DNA from: Telopea speciosissima
Taxonomy: Eukaryota > Streptophyta > Magnoliopsida > Proteales > Proteaceae
Length of the DNA stretch: 64,000 bases
Reading direction: 5' to 3'
NCBI RefSeq assembly: GCF_018873765.1
Contig: NC_057925.1
Coordinates: 61,941,970 to 62,005,969, forward strand
Position numbers and translations under genes: made by a program. Below, piece by piece: positions 9,519 through 56,375 of the stretch. The notes beneath the pieces were generated by a model. The model saw only the letters and a program-made list of their open reading frames with translations, was not told the DNA's origin and ran no database searches. How positions within the stretch are numbered: the first letter of the stretch is position 1; every line of letters begins with the position of its first letter.

Positions 9519-9590
9519 GCGTTTGTAGTCCAACGGTTAGGATAATTGCCTTCCAAGCAATAGACCCGGGTTCGACTCCCGGCAGACGCA
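9519..9590 (+). tRNA. tRNA-Gly (anticodon UCC)
   Basis: The 72-nt sequence folds as a cloverleaf. The acceptor arm GCGTTTG pairs with CAGACGC (one G-U pair). The T arm is CCGGGTTCGACTCCCGG and the anticodon loop contains TTCCAA (UCC). Internal promoter boxes are intact: A box about TAGTCCAACGG, B box GGTTCGACTCC. CAA motifs lie just upstream (gcaacaag) and a T run follows, both usual for plant Pol III tRNA genes. There is no intron. CCA is not encoded except the final A being the discriminator base. It looks functional. Confidence 0.95.
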
Positions 9591-18040: not shown

Positions 18041-18311
18041 GGTCAACTATCATCAGTTGCATCATCATGTTTGGTTATTCTTTCCTGATCTGAAGGACTC
18101 GCAGGCAATCTCCTCTGCACCCCGAGAATCCGTCAAACTTGCAGGGTGGGACCAAAGATGTTATTTTATGGGTTCAATTATTATGAATGAGCGAAGCTAT
18201 GAAGTTGCTGGCACAAATAAATATACCTTCAGGTTTCATTTTTAACCCCATCCATGATCCAATCCAACCCCCCAATCTGAGAAAGCCTGAAATAAATCCA
18301 GTAATCCACAG
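18041..18311 (+). promoter_or_regulatory. 5' flank of PUT copy 1, duplicated upstream of copy 2
   Basis: Blocks shared in the same order with 24140-24356 include caatctcctct, gatccgtc/gaatccgtc, gtgggaccaaa, ttattatg and agct(a/g)tgaag. The duplicated unit therefore carried its proximal promoter or leader. No TATA box could be fixed; aataaatata near 18215 is a candidate. Confidence 0.65.
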
Positions 18312-19790
18312 ATGACTGGCGAAACCGAAATGTCCAACCCCAGAATCGTAGGGGCTGGGGATGGAGGAGCAGGTGAAAGCGGAGCTGCAGACATGGAAGT
18401 AGTGGAAGATCTCGAAGTACCCAATAACAACACGAAGAAGAAACACAACAAACTCAAACTCCTCCCACTCATCTTCCTCATCTACTTTGAAGTCTCCGGT
18501 GGCCCTTACGGCGAAGAAACCACCGTCCAAGCCGCCGGACCCCTTCTTGCAATCGTGGGTTTCCTCGTATTCCCTTTTATCTGGAGCATCCCTGAAGCCC
18601 TCATCACTGCGGAGCTCGCCACCACTTTCCCCGGCAACGGCGGTTTTGTCATCTGGGCAGAACGAGCTTTTGGCCCTTTTTGGGGTAATCTCATGGGCTA
18701 CTGGAAATTCCTCAGTGGTGTCATCAGCAACGCCGCATACCCTGTTCTTTGTATTGATTACCTCAAACGTGTCTTCCCAATCTTTGATTCGGGTCCCCCT
18801 CGCGTTATCGCTATCTGTGGAGCCACTGTGTCCTTGACTTTCCTCAATTACACTGGCCTCACCATTGTCGGTTACACCGCCGTTGCTCTGGCTATCATAT
18901 CTATGCTTCCCTTCTATATAATGGGTCTGGTTTCCATACCCAAACTCCGTCCCCATCGATGGATCAGCATGGGCGACCCTGGATTGAAGAAAGATTGGCA
19001 CCTATACTTGAATACACTATTCTGGAACTTGAATTTCTGGGATAATGCCAGTACTTTAGCAGGAGAAGTGGATCGGCCACAGAAGACCTTTCCAAAAGCA
19101 CTGATATCGGCTGGAGTTGTGACTGTTGTTGGTTATCTGGTGCCTCTATTGGCCGTTACAGGAGCTCTAGAGTTAGAACAAGATAAATGGGGTGATGGGT
19201 ACTTGGCGGACGCAGCAGGGATGATCGTTGGCAAGTGGCTTAAATACTGGGTCGAGGTGGGTGCTGTATTGTCTGGGATCGGTCTCTTCGAAGCCCAATT
19301 GAGCAGTGCCGCCTACCAGGTGGTGGGCATGGCAGATCTCGGGTTTATCCCAAAATTTTTTGCTGTGAGATCGAAATGGTTCAATACCCCATGGGTTGGG
19401 ATCCTGTTGTCAAGCGTGATAACTCTGGGAATCTCGTTCATTGACTTCACAAACATCATATCAGCTTCAAATTTCTTGTACAGCTTAGGGATGTTGTTGG
19501 AGATATCATCATTCATTTGGTTGAGGAAGAAGTATCCAAAGTTGGATAGGCCATATAAGGTGCCCATGGGAATACCGGGTCTGGTTGCAATGTGCTTGAT
19601 CCCAACTGGGTTTCTGATATTGGTGATGGTCATAGGGAATATGGTGGTGTATATCATCAGTGCGGCTCTCACTGTGGTTGGGATTGGAAGCTACTTCGTT
19701 ATGAAATGGTGCAAGGCTCGCAGCTGTCTAGAGTTCACTAAGCAGGAGGAGCACAGGGATGAAGAGATTGGGAGCATCACTGAGGGTTAA
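18312..19790 (+). CDS. PUT: Polyamine transporter, PUT/LAT family (tandem copy 1)
   Basis: An intact, intronless 492-residue frame, normal for the plant polyamine uptake transporters (APC superfamily, L-type group; Arabidopsis PUT1-PUT5, including RMV1/LHR1). These carry spermidine, spermine and the analogue paraquat across plasma or endomembranes by H+ coupling. The N-terminal tail (1-48) is hydrophilic. The first membrane helix carries the family signature [11 protein letters not shown] (59-69), and about 12 hydrophobic segments follow. Conserved blocks include [19 protein letters not shown] and [20 protein letters not shown]. The C-tail is acidic ([11 protein letters not shown]). The ATG aligns with the ATG of copy 2 within conserved flanking DNA, which supports this start. 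By eye about 43 of 445 aligned core residues differ between copies, mostly conservatively, so both appear to be under purifying selection. Confidence 0.95.
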
Positions 19791-20311
19791 ACGGTAAGAC
19801 GGACTAGTGAGGTGTTTCTTATCTTTTCCCTTCTACTTCCACTTGACAAGCAGCATTATTTAGAGTCATTAGCCAAATAGAAAAATCAGAATTCAGAATT
19901 CAAGAAGAAGAAACAAGTTCAGTGTCAGGGGGGTGTGTGACCTATGAATACGGTAAAAAAAGAAAGGAAAAAAGGGGTGTACAGGATTATTTGAAGAGGA
20001 TTAGAATCCATAGAAACTGGATTGAATTGGTTAACCATTTGGGATTGGTGTGGGGTTTGTGTGGTTATATTTTCATAAAATAAAAAAAAGGATTGAATTT
20101 AAGAGAGTGTTTTCCTTCGCCAGGGTGGTCCTTTGACCGAGGGGTTCGGTTGGTGTGAAGAGGATTTCCGAAAACAATGGACAGGTGTTATAGATTTGGT
20201 ATAAAGTGTACTATGAAAACTTTTTCCTTTGAATTTATGGTAGTTGTAAGTGTAACTGATTGAATTTGACTTTCTCCAAATTGTTTCATAGTGATCTTCT
20301 ATAAAAATCTT
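19791..20311 (+). repeat. 3' flank of PUT copy 1, first part of duplicated segment
   Basis: Shares atcagaattcagaa and caagaagaagaaac with the 3' flank of copy 2 (about 25985-26020). Further similarity includes gatt(g/t)aattt and ttctcc near 20264 and 26145. Similarity then stops abruptly at the MITE insertion at 20312 and resumes at 23494. Confidence 0.7.
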
Positions 20312-20480
20312 GGAAAAAAATTGTCTGTCCGGGAGTGTGGCCTACGCCAGCACTCCTATGATTTTATCTCTCTCTTCCTCATGTGAAAAGACACCTATAT
20401 CCCCTTATTTTAAAGAGGAGAGAGATAGATATATGAGAGTGCTGGCATAGGCCACACTCTCGTCCAAAAAACTGCTTCCC
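20312..20480. mobile_element. Mutator-like MITE with perfect 9-bp TSD
   Basis: AAAAATCTT is found at 20303-20311 and 20481-20489. The element is nearly a perfect hairpin: gtgtggcctacgccagcact on the left, agtgctggcataggccacac on the right. It is 169 bp with no coding. Relatives are at 23340-23493, 57808-57976 and inside the 29-31 kb palindrome. Confidence 0.9.
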
Positions 20481-20544
20481 AAAAATCTTTTACAATGTTA
20501 AATTATTTGTAAGTTTATTTTTACCCTTTTAGCATAATAGTATA

Positions 20545-24139: not shown

Positions 24140-24356
24140 CCTGAATCCTGATCTGATATGGACTTCCCCAATCTCCTCTCCACCAAAGGATCCGTCACAC
24201 ACTCAAACTGGGAGAGTGGGACCAAACACGTTCCCATTTATATCTCCTCCATTCTTATTATTATTATGTATGGGCAAAGCTGTGAAGGTGCTTTCACTGT
24301 AAATAATCTTCAGTTTTCAACCCTTCTCTACTGGATCTACCCACTCAAATCAACGA
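24140..24356 (+). promoter_or_regulatory. 5' flank of PUT copy 2
   Basis: Holds the blocks shared with copy 1 (see the 18041-18311 entry). Its upstream border lies close to the rbcL relic, so more distal regulatory DNA differs between the two copies. Confidence 0.6.
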
Positions 24357-25931
24357 ATGACTGCGGAAATCCAAATTTCCTACACCCGAGTCAGAGGGGC
24401 TGGGGCTGGGGCTGAGGCTGAGGCTGGGAGTGGAGCAAGAGGAGGAGGTGAAGGTGGAGTTGCAGACATGGGAGTCTCTGCTTCTTCTCCTTCCTCATAT
24501 CATCAGCTCGAAGGAGTTGGGGATGGAATAGTGGAAGATCCCAATTTACCCAACAACAGCAACAACAACAACGTGAAGAAGAAAGACAACAAACTCAAAC
24601 TCCTCCCACTCATCTTCCTCATCTACTTCGAAGTCTCCGGTGGCCCCTATGGCGAAGAAACCGCCGTCCAAGCCGCCGGACCCCTTTTAGCGATAGTGGG
24701 TTTCCTCGTATTCCCCTTTATTTGGAGTATCCCTGAATGCCTTATCACTGCAGAGCTAGCCACCACGTTCCCAGGCAACGGCGGATTTGTCATCTGGGCA
24801 GAACGGGCTTTTGGCCCTTTTTGGGGTAATCTCATGGGATTCTGGAAGTTCCTCAGTGGTGTCATCAACAACGCTGCTTATCCAGTCCTCTGTGTTGATT
24901 ACCTCAAACGCATCTTTCCAATCTTTGCTTCGGGTCCCCCTCGCGTTATCGCTGTATGTGCAGCCACTCTGTCCTTGACTTTCCTCAATTACACTGGCCT
25001 CGCCATCGTCGGTTATACCGCCGTTGCTCTGGCTGTCGTTTCTATGCTTCCCTTCTATATAATGGGTCTGGTTTCCATACCCAAACTCCAGCCCCATCGG
25101 TGGATCAGCATGGGCGACCCTGGATTGAAGAAAGATTGGCACCTGTACTTGAATACTCTCTTCTGGAACTTGAATTTCTGGGACAACGCCAGTACTTTAG
25201 CAGGCGAAGTGGATCGGCCCCAGAAGACCTTCCCCAAAGCTCTGATATCAGCTGGAGTTGTGACCATTATAGGTTATCTGGTGCCTCTATTGGCTGCTAC
25301 AGGAGCTATGGAGCTGGAACAAGATAAATGGGGTGATGGGTACTTGGCCGACGCAGCAGGGATGATTGTTGGCAAGTGGCTTAAATACTGGATTGAGGTG
25401 GGTGCCGTATTGTCTGCAATTGGTCTCTTTGAAGCCCAGTTGAGTAGTGCTGCCTACCAGGTCGTGGGCATGGCGGATCTGGGATTCATCCCGAAATTCT
25501 TTGCTGTGCGATCGAAATGGTTTAATACCCCATGGGTTGCGATTGTCCTATCGAGCGCGATAACACTAGCAATCTCGTTCATGGACTTCACAAACATCAT
25601 AGCATCTGCAAATTTCTTGTACAGTTTAGGGATGTTATTGGAGATAGCATCCTTCATTTGGTTGAGGAAGAAATATCCCAAATTGGATAGGCCATATAAG
25701 GTTCCCATGAGAATACGGGGGCTGGTGGCGATGTGCGTGATCCCCATTGCGTTCCTGATATTGGTGATGGTCATAGGGAGCGTGCTGGTGTATGTGATCA
25801 GTGCGGCTCTCACTGTTCTTGGGATTGGAAGCTACTTCATCATGAAATGGTGCAAGGATCGTAGCTGTCTAGAGTTCACCAAGCAGGAGGAGCACAGGGA
25901 CGAAGAGATTGGGGGCATCAATGAGGTGTAA
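24357..25931 (+). CDS. PUT: Polyamine transporter, PUT/LAT family (tandem copy 2)
   Basis: An intact, intronless 524-residue frame. Membrane core, signature [11 protein letters not shown] (91-101), [15 protein letters not shown] block and acidic C-tail are as in copy 1. The N-terminal tail is 32 residues longer. Near 24400-24440 a GGGGCT/GAGGCT hexamer repeat encodes a Gly/Ala/Glu-rich stretch ([18 protein letters not shown]), and an Asn-rich run (NNSNNNN) precedes the first helix. The start ATGACTGCGGAAA aligns with ATGACTGGCGAAA of copy 1; an internal Met38 is an alternative. Function is inferred from the family: H+-coupled import of polyamines, plasma membrane or endomembrane. The variable tail may affect sorting or turnover, which is inference only. 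Confidence 0.95.
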
Positions 25932-28650: not shown

Positions 28651-28952
28651 GAATTTAGGGTTGTTATTGGTTTCTTATCAGGTTATATCGGTTTGGGTTT
28701 GATTTTGATCCGATTTCTTATCAGTTTTGGTGTGATTCAATTTGGGTTCAGTGTCGTAAAACCTTAATCCAAAATCAATTAAGGCTTCATTTTGATTACG
28801 ATTTGGACCGATTTTAATTGGTTCAGCCTCAAATTCGTGGTTTCGGGCTAGTGTTTGACACCGCTAGGAACATATTTGGTGACCAATTCAATCTTATAAT
28901 TTTTAATCAATGTTTAATTTTTCAAACTTACAAGAAATTTTGCCTTTTTTTA

Positions 28953-29070
28953 GGGTCAAATACGCATGCACCCCCTAACTCGTTCAAAAATTCCACATAC
29001 ACCCCTGCTCTTCTGACGATTTCACACGCACCCCTTGATAATCCATGCGCACCCTTGCTTTTCAAATTAA
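28953..29070. repeat. Copy A of a repeat beginning gggtcaaatacgcatgca
   Basis: Shares its whole length with 30051-30175 in direct orientation (tcgttcaaaaattccacat, cttttcaaattaa). The start resembles TIRs of the gcaaattacatgcacc type seen at 54139. It is cut off by a poly-T LINE end at 29071. Confidence 0.7.
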
Positions 29071-29210
29071 ACTTTTTTTTTTGATAAAGAGAGAGTTTAC
29101 TGAATATAGTCATGTGTACAGCCAGTAGCTTCAAATGCACAAAGGTCCTGAAGCCACGGAATGGAGAATGGCCAATCTGTCTCACACATGATAGACAGGA
29201 CCTTCCTAGC
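29071..29210 (-). mobile_element. LINE-like 3' fragment with poly-T junction
   Basis: Starts with a T run followed by gataaagagagagttt, similar to the tails of the micro-insertions and of the element at 63874. The remainder (ggtcctgaagccacgg, ggaccttcctagcc) is non-coding. Confidence 0.4.
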
Positions 29211-31217
29211 CAAGACAATGAAGTCATTTCATGTAAAGAGGAGAGAGAGAGAGGATGCTATCATACACTCCCCTAAGGCTCATAATACTTTTTCCTTTTT
29301 AGGAAAAATGTTTTCTTATCCAAGTGTGGCCGATGCCACTGCTTTCGTATCTATGTCTCTCTATCATTTACCGGAAAAAAAAAAAAGTATCTATGTCTCT
29401 CTATCCTCTTATGATATGACATTTCCAACTCTTATTGGAGAGGAGAGATATAGACCTAGCGACACTGGCGTAGATCACACCGCGAATAGAGAATTCTTCC
29501 CCTCATTCATATTTCTTTATCATCATTATTATCGTAAGGGCAGCACACCGCATGCGTCTAGATAGCGTTTGCCCAAGTACCTTTCTCTCAAAAATAAAAA
29601 TATTTAGAACCTTGAATATTATCAGGATAAAAGATTTCCACCACATCCGTACAAGATACTCTTCACGTCATGCTTGGCCACTTCTCTGAATTAGGAAAGC
29701 TTACAATTGGATAGATTCAATAATCAACACCATTTAAACAAACCATCAAATTTAATAGCATTATCGTCTCCAATTCCTAAAGCTTGGCAGTGCGGCATTG
29801 GTAGATGGAGATGTCGACACGTGCTAGCTCAGACTATGAGCTCGGACCGTTAGATATCTGAGCTGCCATGTGTCAACATCTCCACCTAGCACTGCCAAGA
29901 TTTAGGAAATTAGAGAGGATAATTTTCTATATTTTATAGGGTTTTGCCATTGATTTTTCAATTTGAGTTCATTTTTTGCTCACTGCATAGACTTTTGAAG
30001 CTTTTATACCCTCTGATGACAACACACAAGGATAAAAAGGTTTTAAAAAAAGGGTTAAATACGCATGCACTCCCTAAGTCGTTCAAAAATTCCACATGCA
30101 CCCCCTGCTTTTCTGACAATTCCACACGGGCCCCTTGATAATTCCACATGCACCCTCTATTTTTCAAATTAATCTATATTTAAGTCACGTGGTTAATATC
30201 AGGTCTCAAATGCTAACGGTTCTAAAATTGAAGTATGTAATTTACATTCTTCAGTTTTAGAACCGTTAGCATTTGACACCTGATATTAACCACATGACTT
30301 AAATATGGATTAATTTAAATATAGATTAATTTGAAAAACAAGGGACATGGATTTAATTTAGAAGTACATGACTTAAATATGGATTAATTTGAAAAACAAA
30401 GGAGATCACTTAAATATTAACCACATGACTTAAATATGGATTAATTTTAGAACCGTTAGCATTTAACACCTGATATCAACCACATGACCTAAATCTTGGC
30501 AGTGATAGGTGGAGATGTCGACACATGGCAGTTCAGATATCTAACGGTCCGAGCTCATGACTATGTTGAGCTCGGACTGTTGGATGTCCGAGCTACCACG
30601 TGTCGCATCTCCACCTAGCAATGCCGCACTGCCGAGCTTTAGGAATTGGAGAGGATAATGCTATTAAATTTGATGGTTTGTTTAAATGGTGTTGATTATT
30701 GAATCTATCCAATTGTAAGCTTTCCTAAATCAAAGAAGTGGCCAAGCATGACGTGAAGAGTATCTTGTACGGATGTGGTGGAAATCTTTTATCCTGATAA
30801 TATTCAAGGTTCTAAATATTTTTATTTTTGAGAGAAAGGTAATTGGGCAAACACTATCTGGACGCATGCGGTGTACTGCCCTTACGATAATAATGATGAT
30901 AAAGATAATGATAATAAATATGAATGAGGGGGAAAATTCTCTATTTGCAGTGTGATCTATGCCATCGTCCCTAGGTCTATATCTCTCCTCTCCAATAGGA
31001 ATTGGAAATGTCATATCATAAGAGGATAGAGAGACATAGATACTTTTTTTTTCCGGTACATGATAGAGAGACAGAGATAGGAAAGCACTTGCATAGGCCA
31101 CACTTCTGGATAAGAAAACATTTTCCCTAAAAAGGAAAAAGTGTTATGAGCCTTAGGGAGTGTATGATAGCATCCTCTCTATCTCTCCTCTTTACATGAA
31201 ATGACCTCATTGTCTTG
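29211..31217. repeat. Large inverted repeat (palindrome), arms of roughly 0.7 kb
   Basis: Left arm about 29211-29930, right arm about 30480-31217. Paired coordinates sum to about 60,420-60,430 throughout. In the stretch 29581-29785 against 30635-30840 I see only about three mismatches in some 200 bp, so the structure is young or kept uniform. Each arm contains a Mutator-like MITE copy (29300-29515; 30930-31130) and a smaller hairpin with ends cttggcagtg (29783-29910; 30487-30637). The spacer holds its own palindrome. No ORF of note. Confidence 0.9.
30178..30305. repeat. Nested palindrome in the spacer
   Basis: The words taagtca-gtggttaatatcagg and gctaacggttctaaaa are followed, after about 15 bp, by their complements. 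The symmetry centre is about 30241. Derivative pieces (catgacttaaatatggatta) recur several times to about 30480. Confidence 0.85.
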
Positions 31218-31276
31218 TCATTCTCTCACACCTCAGTGGTGTGCTCTTTTATATCACTTCCTTAGAGAATCCTCTC
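31130..31276. mobile_element. Second-family Mutator-like MITE at the right edge of the palindrome
   Basis: Starts ggaaaaagtgttatgagcc and ends ttagagaatcctctcc, with an interior like the 14127-14292 element (ctctttacatgaaatgac). Only its first part is present, inverted, at the left edge of the palindrome. Confidence 0.55.
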
Positions 31277-31659
31277 CTTAATTAAAAAAAAAATTAATAA
31301 TATCTAATTAGGGATGACATTAGGGCTTGCTAATCCTTAAGGTTAGGTTAAGAATAGGTTTATAATATTTTTTTTGAGGGGGGGGGGGTGGTTGGTAGAA
31401 GAATAGGTTTCAGTACCCAAAAAAACAAAATCAAACTCTTCACCCTGACTGGGTCAACACAAGGCACGTTTCAAACATTGATCAATTCGAACCATTTTCT
31501 AAATATCTAGCTGGTTTTGAGGACATTAATACAAACCCAAATATTTCACTAGATTCTTATTGCTCTAAAGAAATAGAGGTGCACTCTCCCTCAAGAGCCC
31601 TCCCCCCCCTCCTCCACACTTCAGCCTATCACCTCGGATTTCAATTTTCTAAAACCGCA
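31277..31659. other. Intergenic; no feature recognised
   Basis: AT-rich, with a poly-G patch at 31378-31388. Confidence 0.5.
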
Positions 31660-54138: not shown

Positions 54139-56375
54139 TTTAGCAAATTACATGCACCTCCCTCGTATTTTAACTAATTACAAAACATGCCCGATTGTTT
54201 CAATAATTACGTTTGTACCCATGAAGGCTGACCGTATTAGTTTTAAAATATAAAAGACATTTTTACCCTTATTATATTTTGAACTAAAATGATAAAATTG
54301 AAATACCATTTTTACCCTTTTTACATCCTCAAACCTATATTCCCCAAATCGTCGTCTTCTTCCTCCAACTCTTCCTGTTATATTTCTGTGAGAAACCTAA
54401 AACCCCCAAAAATCTTCCTCCTCCTGCTACATTTTAGTTTTTATCTTTCGAAAAGAATAATCTTGAACAATGTTGTTTGAGTCCCCTCCATTTGTTGTTT
54501 TCTTCATTGTTTCCATCGGAATTAGAACAATTCTAATTTGAACTGGGTTTACGGTTCACTCTAGTTTGGTTAGGCTTTCCACTCATTTCCAGACTCAACG
54601 TTCATGTTCCTTTAATAGTACTGGTGGTATTCCAATACACTTCTGAACTGTTCTCTATTTTTGCTGATTGGAATTGGGTTTGTGGTTCAAACTTTGATTA
54701 CAGTATGGTTTTAGTTCCCAGCTCGGTATTCATGTTCTTTAGTTACTACTGCTAGGCTTCCTCAATAATTCATGCTCTCCTTTTCGTTGATTGAGATTAA
54801 GTTTGTTGTTCAAACTCTGGTTTCACACTCAGTTCCCAGTTTCATGGCTCTCTGTTCTGCAGTAATTCGATCTTACCGGGGGAAAAAAATTAGACTATAA
54901 AACCAACTTTCTGCAGTGGCTCTCTGAGTTTCAAGATTTATTTCTGTGTTTGGTTTGATTACATGAATTGGGCAAATGAGGAATCCATGTTTAATGGGTG
55001 ATTTGAGTCTGAATATTTGATTGATGCTATCACCTTGGAGATCTGATGCCTATCCTTGCTGCCAATCTCCATTCTCGTTAGTATTTGCAGATGCATTCCC
55101 CCACACCCCCTTTTCCTATTATATTTTTTTCCTTGAGATTTTTATTTACAGAGCTAATTGTATCATCTTCTTGATTTTTGTAAATAAATCATCACGCGTT
55201 AGGGTGTTACTTGAACGGAGATGGGAACGCAGCGGAAGAGGATCTTGTACGAGTTTGGTTACTAGCTTCACGAATTCGAACGATCTCTTTCATGATCTTC
55301 GAATATCTTTAAAGGTTTCTTCAGGAAGAAGAATTTAACACCACAAATCCTTAGGAAGAGATGGAATCCCAAGAGCACACAATTATTTGGAGAGTAGGGA
55401 GACAAAAACAAATCTTGGTTACTGATGTTATCATGGGACTTAGGGTTAAAGCATCTATTTATAGCCAAAACCCTAAGTCTCCCTTTTTACAGTCTTTCAC
55501 TCTAAATAGGAAAGCGGGAGAGGGAGGCGCTCACTTAAAGTGAACGGCTCCCTCCCCTTGCTCACGGGTTGGGTCAGGCCGCCCCACATGGGCGCCATGG
55601 AATGGGTCCAAGACCCGGAGATTAACAATTTTGATTGTGAATATAATTACTAAACCTTATACTTTTCCCCATTTTTTGTGCCATTGATTAGCATTTTGTT
55701 TTTAAAATCTGAAATGTAACCAATTCTTAATTTTCTTGGTATGATCTTTAGGAGAAAGGAGAAGAATGAGATGATGATTTATTGATTTCCCTATTGGTTT
55801 GATTGCCGATATGATGACAACAAAAGTATTAGTTCTAGATGATCATTCTCTCCCATCTTCCATCTTTATGACCTATTTGATCGAAATCCTCTTCTCTTAT
55901 GTAGAATTTTCAATCTCTTATCTTGTATCCGAATGTATTTTTCATCTGGGTTTTATGAGTTTTCTTTCTATTCAGGGTATTGTTGCTGTAATCAATCGGT
56001 AATAATTTTCTTTTCTAGTTCATACTTGGCGACATTATTTTGTACTTGAATTTGTTGTACTGGATCATAGATTCTTCTGTCTAATTTTAGTAGTAGTTAT
56101 AACTGCAGTGGTTCTGATAGAAATGTAGCAGCAGGAGGATGAGGAGGAGGAAGAAGAAGAAGATGATTTGGAGATTTTAGGTGTGAGGATGTAAAAATGG
56201 TATTTCCATTTTATCAATTTAATTTAATATATAATAAGGATAAAAATATCTTTTAAATTTTAAAACTAATACTTCATTAACACCGTCAGCTTTCATGGGT
56301 GCAAAAGTAATTATCAAAATAATGCAGGTGTTTTGTAATTGATTCAAACACAAGAGGGTGCATATAATTTGCCCT
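54139..56375. mobile_element. Non-autonomous TIR element, about 2.24 kb, TIRs of roughly 270 bp
   Basis: Left end agcaaattacatgcacc, right end ggtgcatataatttgccc. Inverted similarity continues inward through acaaaaca, aattacgtttg/caaaagtaatt, acccatgaa, tagttttaaaat, ccttattata and the 'cttcttcctcc' block to about 54440 and 56090. Such long TIRs suggest a Mutator-like or similar DNA element. Flanks are T-rich, so a TSD cannot be proved. The interior holds three degenerate copies of a roughly 120-bp repeat (about 54536-54860; gttcccag, cattcatgttc) and no transposase. Confidence 0.75.
54536..54860 (+). repeat. Three degenerate tandem copies of an approximately 120-bp unit
   Basis: gggttt(a/g)(c/t)ggttca, ttcatgttc(c/t)ttta and ttgctgattg/tcgttgattg recur in order three times, the third copy partial. 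Confidence 0.6.

What the first reader, a model, noticed from the sequence alone, without database searches (positions are those of the whole stretch)
29211..31217. Young, roughly 2 kb palindrome built from nested MITEs
The arms are almost identical over long stretches (about three differences in 200 bp by eye), far closer than other repeats in the window. Each arm carries a Mutator-type MITE, an ordinary 200-bp segment and a smaller hairpin, so this is not simply one element's TIRs. The spacer has a second palindrome. Transcription through it would give a long hairpin RNA, a natural source of 21-24 nt siRNAs that could act on all MITE relatives nearby (14.1, 20.3, 23.3 and 57.8 kb). How it arose (inverted duplication or a giant foldback element) is open.
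Basis: partly seen in the sequence, partly recalled or inferred. Interest (0 to 1): 0.72.

Follow-up and report, generated by a model that had tools for sequence, protein, structure and literature searches.

The report
Old fold-back duplication of transposon cluster
A 2-kb palindrome in a plant chromosome is most likely the fossil of a DNA fold-back accident that copied a small cluster of transposon remnants in reverse; it is an ordinary kind of rearrangement, notable mainly because its centre and edges can still be read.

Summary
The palindrome is real and the coordinates are exact. The arms (29211-29906 and 30488-31217) match at 656 of 691 ungapped columns (94.9%; K2P 0.053). It is not especially young, and nothing marks it as a giant foldback element. 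The middle of the arm looks single copy: the only 2 genome hits are the two arms.

The "second palindrome" in the spacer looks like the true centre of the same palindrome. A dispersed element, here called D, is read forward to base 30241 and then backward, with 1 nt between. The turn sits at a short inverted repeat, TGTA-ATG-TACA, present in 9 of 14 D relatives. An exact second copy of the turn was not found. The reverse half then shows four partial re-copies of D and a 271-base skip before the long arm resumes. A 5'-truncated LINE cuts the left outer end.

Best reading: a fold-back inverted duplication with an asymmetric centre; two events are not excluded. A hairpin siRNA source remains possible, but nothing here tests transcription. 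The palindrome shares no exact 18-mer with the rest of the window, so siRNAs acting on the named neighbours are not supported.

The parts
29211..29906 (+). Left arm (read here as the original copy)
   Evidence: Inverted match to 30488-31217, 94.9% of ungapped columns
30488..31217 (-). Right arm (read here as the reverse copy)
   Evidence: inner end cuts repeat C inside its terminal repeat
30163..30319 (.). Centre of the palindrome: D forward then D backward, centre base 30241
   Evidence: 78-nt arms, 92%, 1 nt between; turn at TGTAATTTACA versus TGTAATGTACA in 9 of 14 D relatives
30315..30494 (-). Four partial re-copies of one D tract, all in reverse orientation; about 30339-30365 and 30403-30413 stay unassigned
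   Evidence: 30315-30338, 30369-30396, 30414-30447 and 30443-30494 match left-half D at 30183-30160, 30187-30160, 30199-30166 and 30229-30178; no forward-direction match of this stretch to 30051-30241
30488..30494 (.). Junction D to C (CCTAAAT), imperfect microhomology; 271 bases of the left half (30177-29907) have no partner in the right half
   Evidence: Overlapping matches 30443-30494 (D) and 30488-30558 (C)
30051..30241 (+). Dispersed repeat D (starts GGGTTAAATACGCATGCAC in most relatives), left half of the centre
   Evidence: Many genome matches (capped list); 14 relatives aligned
29760..29927 (+). Repeat C in left arm, both terminal repeats present; Mutator-type MITE candidate
   Evidence: Genome copies mostly match from 29760 to about 29923-29930 (capped list); terminal repeats and flanks of 7 copies
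30488..30659 (-). Repeat C in right arm, inner terminal repeat cut at 30488
29516..29759 (+). Single-copy core of left arm (partner about 30660-30903)
   Evidence: Query 29520-29775: 2 of 2 genome hits are the two arms, 97%
29300..29515 (+). Repeat B, small MITE-like segment (partner about 30913-31129)
   Evidence: 4 genome hits: the two arms plus 2 relatives at 79% and 82%
29211..29305 (+). Part of repeat A, cut at its outer side
   Evidence: 21 of 24 other genome matches of the arm begin within its first 30 bases
31130..31280 (-). Repeat A in right arm, running on past the palindrome end (approximate limits)
   Evidence: 29 of 38 other scored genome matches of 31100-31340 span 31217, 28 of these ending at 31269-31304
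29073..29212 (-). 5'-truncated LINE 3' end with poly-A, abutting the left arm
   Evidence: 39 of 39 other scored genome hits stop by query 178 = 29217 (40 of 279 candidates scored); frame reads LARKVLSIMCETDWPFSIPWLQDLCAFE...; relative L074 matches RVT_3, E 6.1e-10, while the window's own 39 residues give no Pfam match
28952..29079 (+). A second, cut copy of D outside the left arm
   Evidence: 85% to the spacer copy

Best explanation
It is an inverted duplication made by DNA fold-back. A strand carrying, in order, repeat A, repeat B, single-copy core, repeat C, a unique stretch and repeat D ended or stalled in D; its end folded on the short inverted repeat TGTA-ATG-TACA and was extended by copying itself backward, giving an almost gapless palindrome centred on base 30241. 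During that copying or later, the reverse half was broken up near the centre (four partial re-copies of D and a 271-base skip from D to C), which left the present asymmetric 'spacer'. Later a LINE insertion with loss of flanking DNA removed the outer end of the left arm, and the arms drifted to 5% divergence. Shown by the sequence: the arms, the gapless centre, the segment order, the core without other copies, the LINE edge. Inferred: fold-back priming, one event, the order of steps, absence of function.
For: Arms include DNA with no other copy found, 2 of 2 hits being the arms. The right half matches the left half read backward, in segments (searched in that direction); the re-copied stretch has no match to D in the other direction. 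D relatives run on past the turn while the window turns back there; a product predicted from the commonest relative tip differs from the window at 2 of 23 bases. 9 of 14 D relatives carry TGTAATGTACA. Forward and backward D share, at 2 columns, states seen in 0 of 14 relatives; among 91 pairs of relatives none shares 2 such private states, 7 share 1 and 84 share 0; one re-copy shares one of the two. The turn occurs exactly only here. Centre arms (92%) and long arms (95%) are of similar divergence. Published fold-back duplications show 2-8 bp inverted microhomology, and 4-6 bp is said to suffice in yeast (PMC3907307, passages); central deletions that break the symmetry stabilise palindromes (PMC8701086, passages).
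Against: Plain identity does not single out the two D halves: they agree at 70 of 75 columns, 11 of 91 pairs of relatives do as well or better, and the backward half is nearly as close to relative L006 (68 of 74). One re-copy has the family state at one of the two diagnostic columns. The long arms and the centre could be two events. A 4-bp inverted repeat is common by chance. Six genome sites within 2 mismatches of the turn were not examined. About 38 bases between the re-copies are unassigned. No outgroup lacking the palindrome could be examined.
Confidence: 0.68

Rival explanations
1. Two events: D folded back by itself (or two D copies met head to head) first, and later a template switch from the reversed D to C made the long arms with a real ~580-bp spacer.
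For: The D-to-C junction at 30488-30494 has imperfect microhomology (D ..ACTTAAAT, C ..CCTAAATC), as a template switch would leave; divergence of centre and arms cannot separate the dates; D-half identity alone does not prove one copy.
Against: The reverse half follows left-half order apart from local re-copying, which one event explains with fewer steps.
Confidence: 0.2
2. A giant foldback or long-TIR transposon.
For: The outer 90 bases belong to a dispersed repeat and the arms are long.
Against: No second copy of the core was found; the dispersed repeat A continues past the right end in 29 of 38 other scored matches and the left end is a LINE junction; no target-site duplication is visible outside 29211 and 31217 (by eye).
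Confidence: 0.03
3. Independent insertions of the same MITEs in opposite orientation.
For: A, B, C and D all have relatives; the 54/56-kb pair in this window looks like that (two members of a dispersed repeat, 77%).
Against: The shared core has no other copy found, and order and joins are the same in both arms.
Confidence: 0.02
4. A working long-hairpin RNA locus that makes siRNAs against the A, C and D families (Mu killer-like). This concerns function and can be true together with the fold-back origin.
For: Predicted fold of the transcript is very stable (-1331 kcal/mol versus -439 to -464 for 5 mononucleotide shuffles); 203 of 676 left-arm 21-mers pair perfectly; 21-mers at 122 positions of the palindrome match exactly some of 83 other genomic loci held.
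Against: No transcription evidence; the longest perfect duplexes (108 and 75 nt) lie almost wholly in the core; none of the shared 21-mers is in the core; no exact 18-mer is shared with the rest of the window; no excess of G.U over A.C among arm differences (8 versus 12, p 0.50); no Rfam microRNA match.
Confidence: 0.08
5. Assembly or read artefact.
For: Fold-back reads do occur in long-read data (recalled).
Against: Arms differ at 35 of 691 columns with several indels and a one-sided LINE edge.
Confidence: 0.02

Closest known systems
Fold-back inverted duplications (human: PMC3907307, passages; yeast: PMC10622511, passages)
   Same: Inverted copy of ordinary DNA, short inverted repeat at the turn, some complex joins
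   Different: Those studied are chromosome-scale; this one is about 2 kb and interstitial. The human cases have spacers of 0.8-70 kb, here the turn is almost gapless
Template-switch mutations that create RNA hairpins (PMC8794818, abstract and passages)
   Same: Replication copies the strand in reverse and makes a new hairpin in one step
   Different: The patterns reported there are up to 59 bp; here about 1 kb
Mu killer of maize (PMC3440606, abstract and passages)
   Same: Inverted duplication of transposon sequence able to give a long hairpin
   Different: Mu killer duplicates part of a transposase gene and silences it; here no coding match was found in the two arm frames searched, and no transcript is known
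Inverted-duplication origin of plant microRNA genes (PMC3237417, abstract and passages)
   Same: Inverted duplication, MITE content
   Different: No microRNA family match here, and no gene-derived arm was seen

Membership tests
Fold-back inverted duplication | Inverted copy of non-repetitive DNA | tested here: met
   Core: 2 of 2 genome hits are the two arms
Fold-back inverted duplication | Short inverted repeat at the turn in the unrearranged sequence | tested here: met
   TGTAATGTACA in 9 of 14 D relatives; the true pre-event sequence is unknown
Fold-back inverted duplication | Both halves of the centre come from one copy | tested here: inconclusive
   2 private shared states against at most 1 in 91 relative pairs, but identity is matched or exceeded by 11 of 91 pairs
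Fold-back inverted duplication | Ancestral, unduplicated allele in a relative | not testable with these tools
   The genome search reports no relatives for this genome
Foldback/long-TIR transposon | Several copies with the same ends | tested here: not met
   Whole arms found only here
Foldback/long-TIR transposon | Target-site duplication at the outer ends | tested here: not met
   None by eye at 29211/31217; right end lies inside repeat A
Mutator-type MITE (repeat C) | 9-bp target-site duplication | tested here: inconclusive
   3 of 7 copies have 8 or 9 of 9 bases (L091, L095, L097); boundaries were scanned, so chance helps; the window's left copy also gives 8 of 9, at shifted boundaries
Mutator-type MITE (repeat C) | Terminal inverted repeats, short, many copies | tested here: met
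Mu killer-like hairpin silencer | Transcribed, with siRNAs | not testable with these tools
   No RNA data
Mu killer-like hairpin silencer | Arms derive from a transposase gene | tested here: not met
   Pfam: 0 families for one stop-to-stop frame of each arm (2 frames only)
MicroRNA gene | Match to a known microRNA family | tested here: not met
   3 Rfam hits in the window, none in the palindrome

The most novel reading that the evidence does not exclude
The palindrome is a live hairpin locus born in one fold-back event, making siRNAs that silence the A, C and D MITE families across the genome: a Mu killer-like silencer made without any transposase gene.
Probability: 0.07. Interest if true: 0.6.

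Novelty: new member of a known kind. Interest (0 to 1): 0.3.

Why it matters
Palindromes tend to lose their central symmetry, so how an old one began is hard to read. Here dispersed relatives of the element at the centre let the turn be placed to within a few bases, and the re-copied fragments show how the centre became asymmetric. It is a usable example for asking how often plant MITEs seed inverted duplications, which are one proposed source of new small-RNA genes (PMC3237417, abstract and passages).

Tried and rejected
Giant transposon, separate MITE insertions and artefact were weighed and set aside (see rivals). A conserved or gene-converted middle tract was tested and is not significant: 633, 1042, 507 and 375 of 5000 shuffles at 100, 150, 190 and 220 columns. 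Selection for RNA pairing was tested by G.U versus A.C counts and not supported. Rfam gave no family in the palindrome. Pfam gave nothing for one stop-to-stop frame of each arm. As a biased substitute, 83 other held loci (211,189 nt, chosen for repeats) held 3 inverted pairs with alignments of at least 150 nt, the longest 272 nt. Dating is loose: with recalled rates of about 1.5 to 7 per billion per site per year, K2P 0.053 gives roughly 4 to 18 million years.

It shows that plain identity does not discriminate. I lowered the best explanation from 0.72 to 0.68 for that, raised the two-event rival from 0.17 to 0.2, and lowered the siRNA rival from 0.1 to 0.08 to fit the novel case.

Dropped rows and limits: the 21-mer count left out 14 loci that overlap this locus. 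Genome hit lists score at most 40 candidates (of 1614 first-look candidates, 77, 279, 1015), so family sizes are lower bounds. For D I aligned 14 relatives (4 loci and 10 fetched) and for C 7, not all listed. The segment search was run in the reverse direction only; one search added the other direction for 30317-30487.

Full report
WHERE. The window lies on contig C10 (61941970-62005969) of a plant genome of 822,943,500 bases in 1287 contigs; contigs C1-C11 are 57-88 Mb. The size, eleven large contigs and a half-size contig of 69.0 Mb (my sum) fit Telopea speciosissima (823 Mb, 11 scaffolds, N50 69 Mb in a table of PMC13080361, passages). The identification is an inference; no call names the genome. 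The palindrome sits between two amino-acid-permease genes in tandem (18.3-19.8 and 24.3-25.9 kb, +) and a glycosyl hydrolase 17 gene with an X8 domain (33.15-34.47 kb, -), so between converging genes.

OBSERVATION. Confirmed with exact ends: 656 of 691 ungapped columns identical, 20 transitions, 15 transversions, 44 gap columns, K2P 0.053. Perfect runs reach 108 and 75 nt. The best 190-column stretch has 3 mismatches, but 507 of 5000 shuffles match that, so no special protection of the middle is shown. The only other separated inverted pair found in the window (at least 60 nt, less than 3 kb apart) is 77% alike and belongs to a dispersed repeat.

WHAT THE ARMS ARE MADE OF. From outside in: part of a dispersed repeat A; a small MITE-like repeat B with few relatives; a core with no other copy found, 2 of 2 hits being the two arms; and repeat C, a short element with terminal inverted repeats and many copies. 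Of 7 C copies fetched, 3 have 8 or 9 of 9 matching flanking bases when boundaries are scanned; the window's own left copy gives 8 of 9 at shifted boundaries. This suggests, but does not prove, a Mutator-type MITE. Because DNA with no other copy is inside the arms, in the same order and with the same joins, the arms are copies of one another and not separate insertions.

THE EDGES. On the right, 29 of 38 other scored matches of 31100-31340 span 31217 (28 of them end at 31269-31304), 5 lie wholly outside it and 4 wholly inside, so the palindrome's end is not an element's end. On the left, 29073-29212 is the 3' end of a LINE in reverse: 39 of 39 other scored hits stop by 29217, the frame reads LARKVLSIMCETDWPFSIPWLQDLCAFEATGCTHDYIQ-stop followed by A-rich sequence, and the homologous stretch of L074 matches RVT_3 at 6.1e-10, while the window's 39 residues alone match nothing in Pfam. 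The LINE (as in relatives such as L066) and A share about four bases (CAAG) at the join. So the left arm probably once reached further and was cut there. No target-site duplication of the LINE was seen by eye.

THE CENTRE. Aligned with 14 relatives of repeat D, the window follows D up to GAAGTATGTAAT and then turns back to read D in reverse, while the relatives do not turn. In 9 of 14 relatives the place of the turn reads TGTAATGTACA, a 4-bp inverted repeat around ATG. Fold-back priming on the commonest tip predicts a 23-base centre that differs from the window at 2 bases. Over the securely aligned stretch (30166-30240), forward and backward D share states absent in all 14 relatives at 2 columns; of 91 pairs of relatives, 84 share no such private state, 7 share one and none shares two. 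One re-copy shares one of the two and has the family state at the other. Identity is no guide: forward against backward 70 of 75, matched or exceeded by 11 of 91 relative pairs, and the backward half agrees with L006 at 68 of 74. A pattern search of the whole genome found the turn exactly only here; six other sites had 2 mismatches, three of them alike on C6, none examined further, with 1 hit for the reversed control pattern.

THE RIGHT HALF READ AS A REVERSE COPY. Outward from the centre, right segments match the left half so: 30242-30316 with 30240-30166; 30315-30338 with 30183-30160; 30369-30396 with 30187-30160; 30414-30447 with 30199-30166; 30443-30494 with 30229-30178; then 30488-30558 with 29906-29836 and 30586-31217 with 29834-29211. 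One search looked in the reverse direction only; a search of 30317-30487 against D in both directions found matches in the reverse direction only. The four short ones are re-copies of one D tract; short pieces between them are unassigned. The step from 30178 to 29906 skips 271 bases of the left half. Left C keeps both terminal repeats, right C lacks its inner one, which fits the left arm as source and the right arm as copy.

MECHANISM. The simplest history is fold-back priming at the D tip, reverse copying with slippage, and a skip or deletion near the centre. Literature agrees in kind: in human inverted duplications 13 of 18 junctions without long repeats have 2-8 bp inverted microhomology and 4-6 bp is said to suffice in yeast (PMC3907307, passages); in yeast a break near short natural inverted repeats drives inverted duplication in certain mutants (PMC10622511, passages); in cells with a long perfect palindrome 93% of 118 rearrangements were deletions, mostly small and breaking the central symmetry, and broken symmetry raised stability (PMC8701086, a review, passages). 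Whether the skip happened during copying or later cannot be told, and two separate events are not excluded.

FUNCTION. A transcript would fold strongly (-1331 kcal/mol; five shuffles -439 to -464) and 203 of 676 left-arm 21-mers pair perfectly. But the two longest perfect runs lie almost wholly in the core, for which no other copy was found. Exact 21-mers shared with 83 other held loci occur at 122 positions, in A, C and D but not in the core. With the rest of the window no 18-mer is shared, and 51 of 3974 21-mer/strand tests have a site with at most 3 mismatches; the seven at 2 mismatches all lie in repeat A. Arm differences show no bias to G.U (8 against 12 A.C). No microRNA family matches. 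I therefore take it as most likely without function, with a small chance of a hairpin siRNA locus. Mu killer (PMC3440606, abstract and passages) is the nearest working analogue, and that paper itself proposes short antisense transcripts rather than the long hairpin as the main route.

NOVELTY. New member of a known kind. One search of the paper library for Telopea with transposable element, inverted repeat and palindrome found no paper; most subscription papers are not held, so this says little.

Noticed in passing
54143-54374 and 56141-56372: An inverted pair (77%) of a dispersed repeat with many genome matches brackets two C/D-box snoRNA genes (54967-55054 snoZ101 and 55764-55848 snoZ102_R77).
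   Followed up: partly
18291-19790 and 24303-25931: Two long open frames in tandem that match amino-acid permease (Pfam AA_permease_2); the polyamine-uptake subtype is recalled, not tested.
   Followed up: partly
28952-29079: A second cut copy of repeat D lies just outside the LINE on the left, 85% like the spacer copy and in the same orientation, so probably a separate older insertion.
   Followed up: partly
20297-20495: A 66% self-palindromic segment, weakly similar to part of the palindrome's outer arm (75% over 68 nt).
   Followed up: no
9519-9590: A tRNA gene (Rfam).
   Followed up: no
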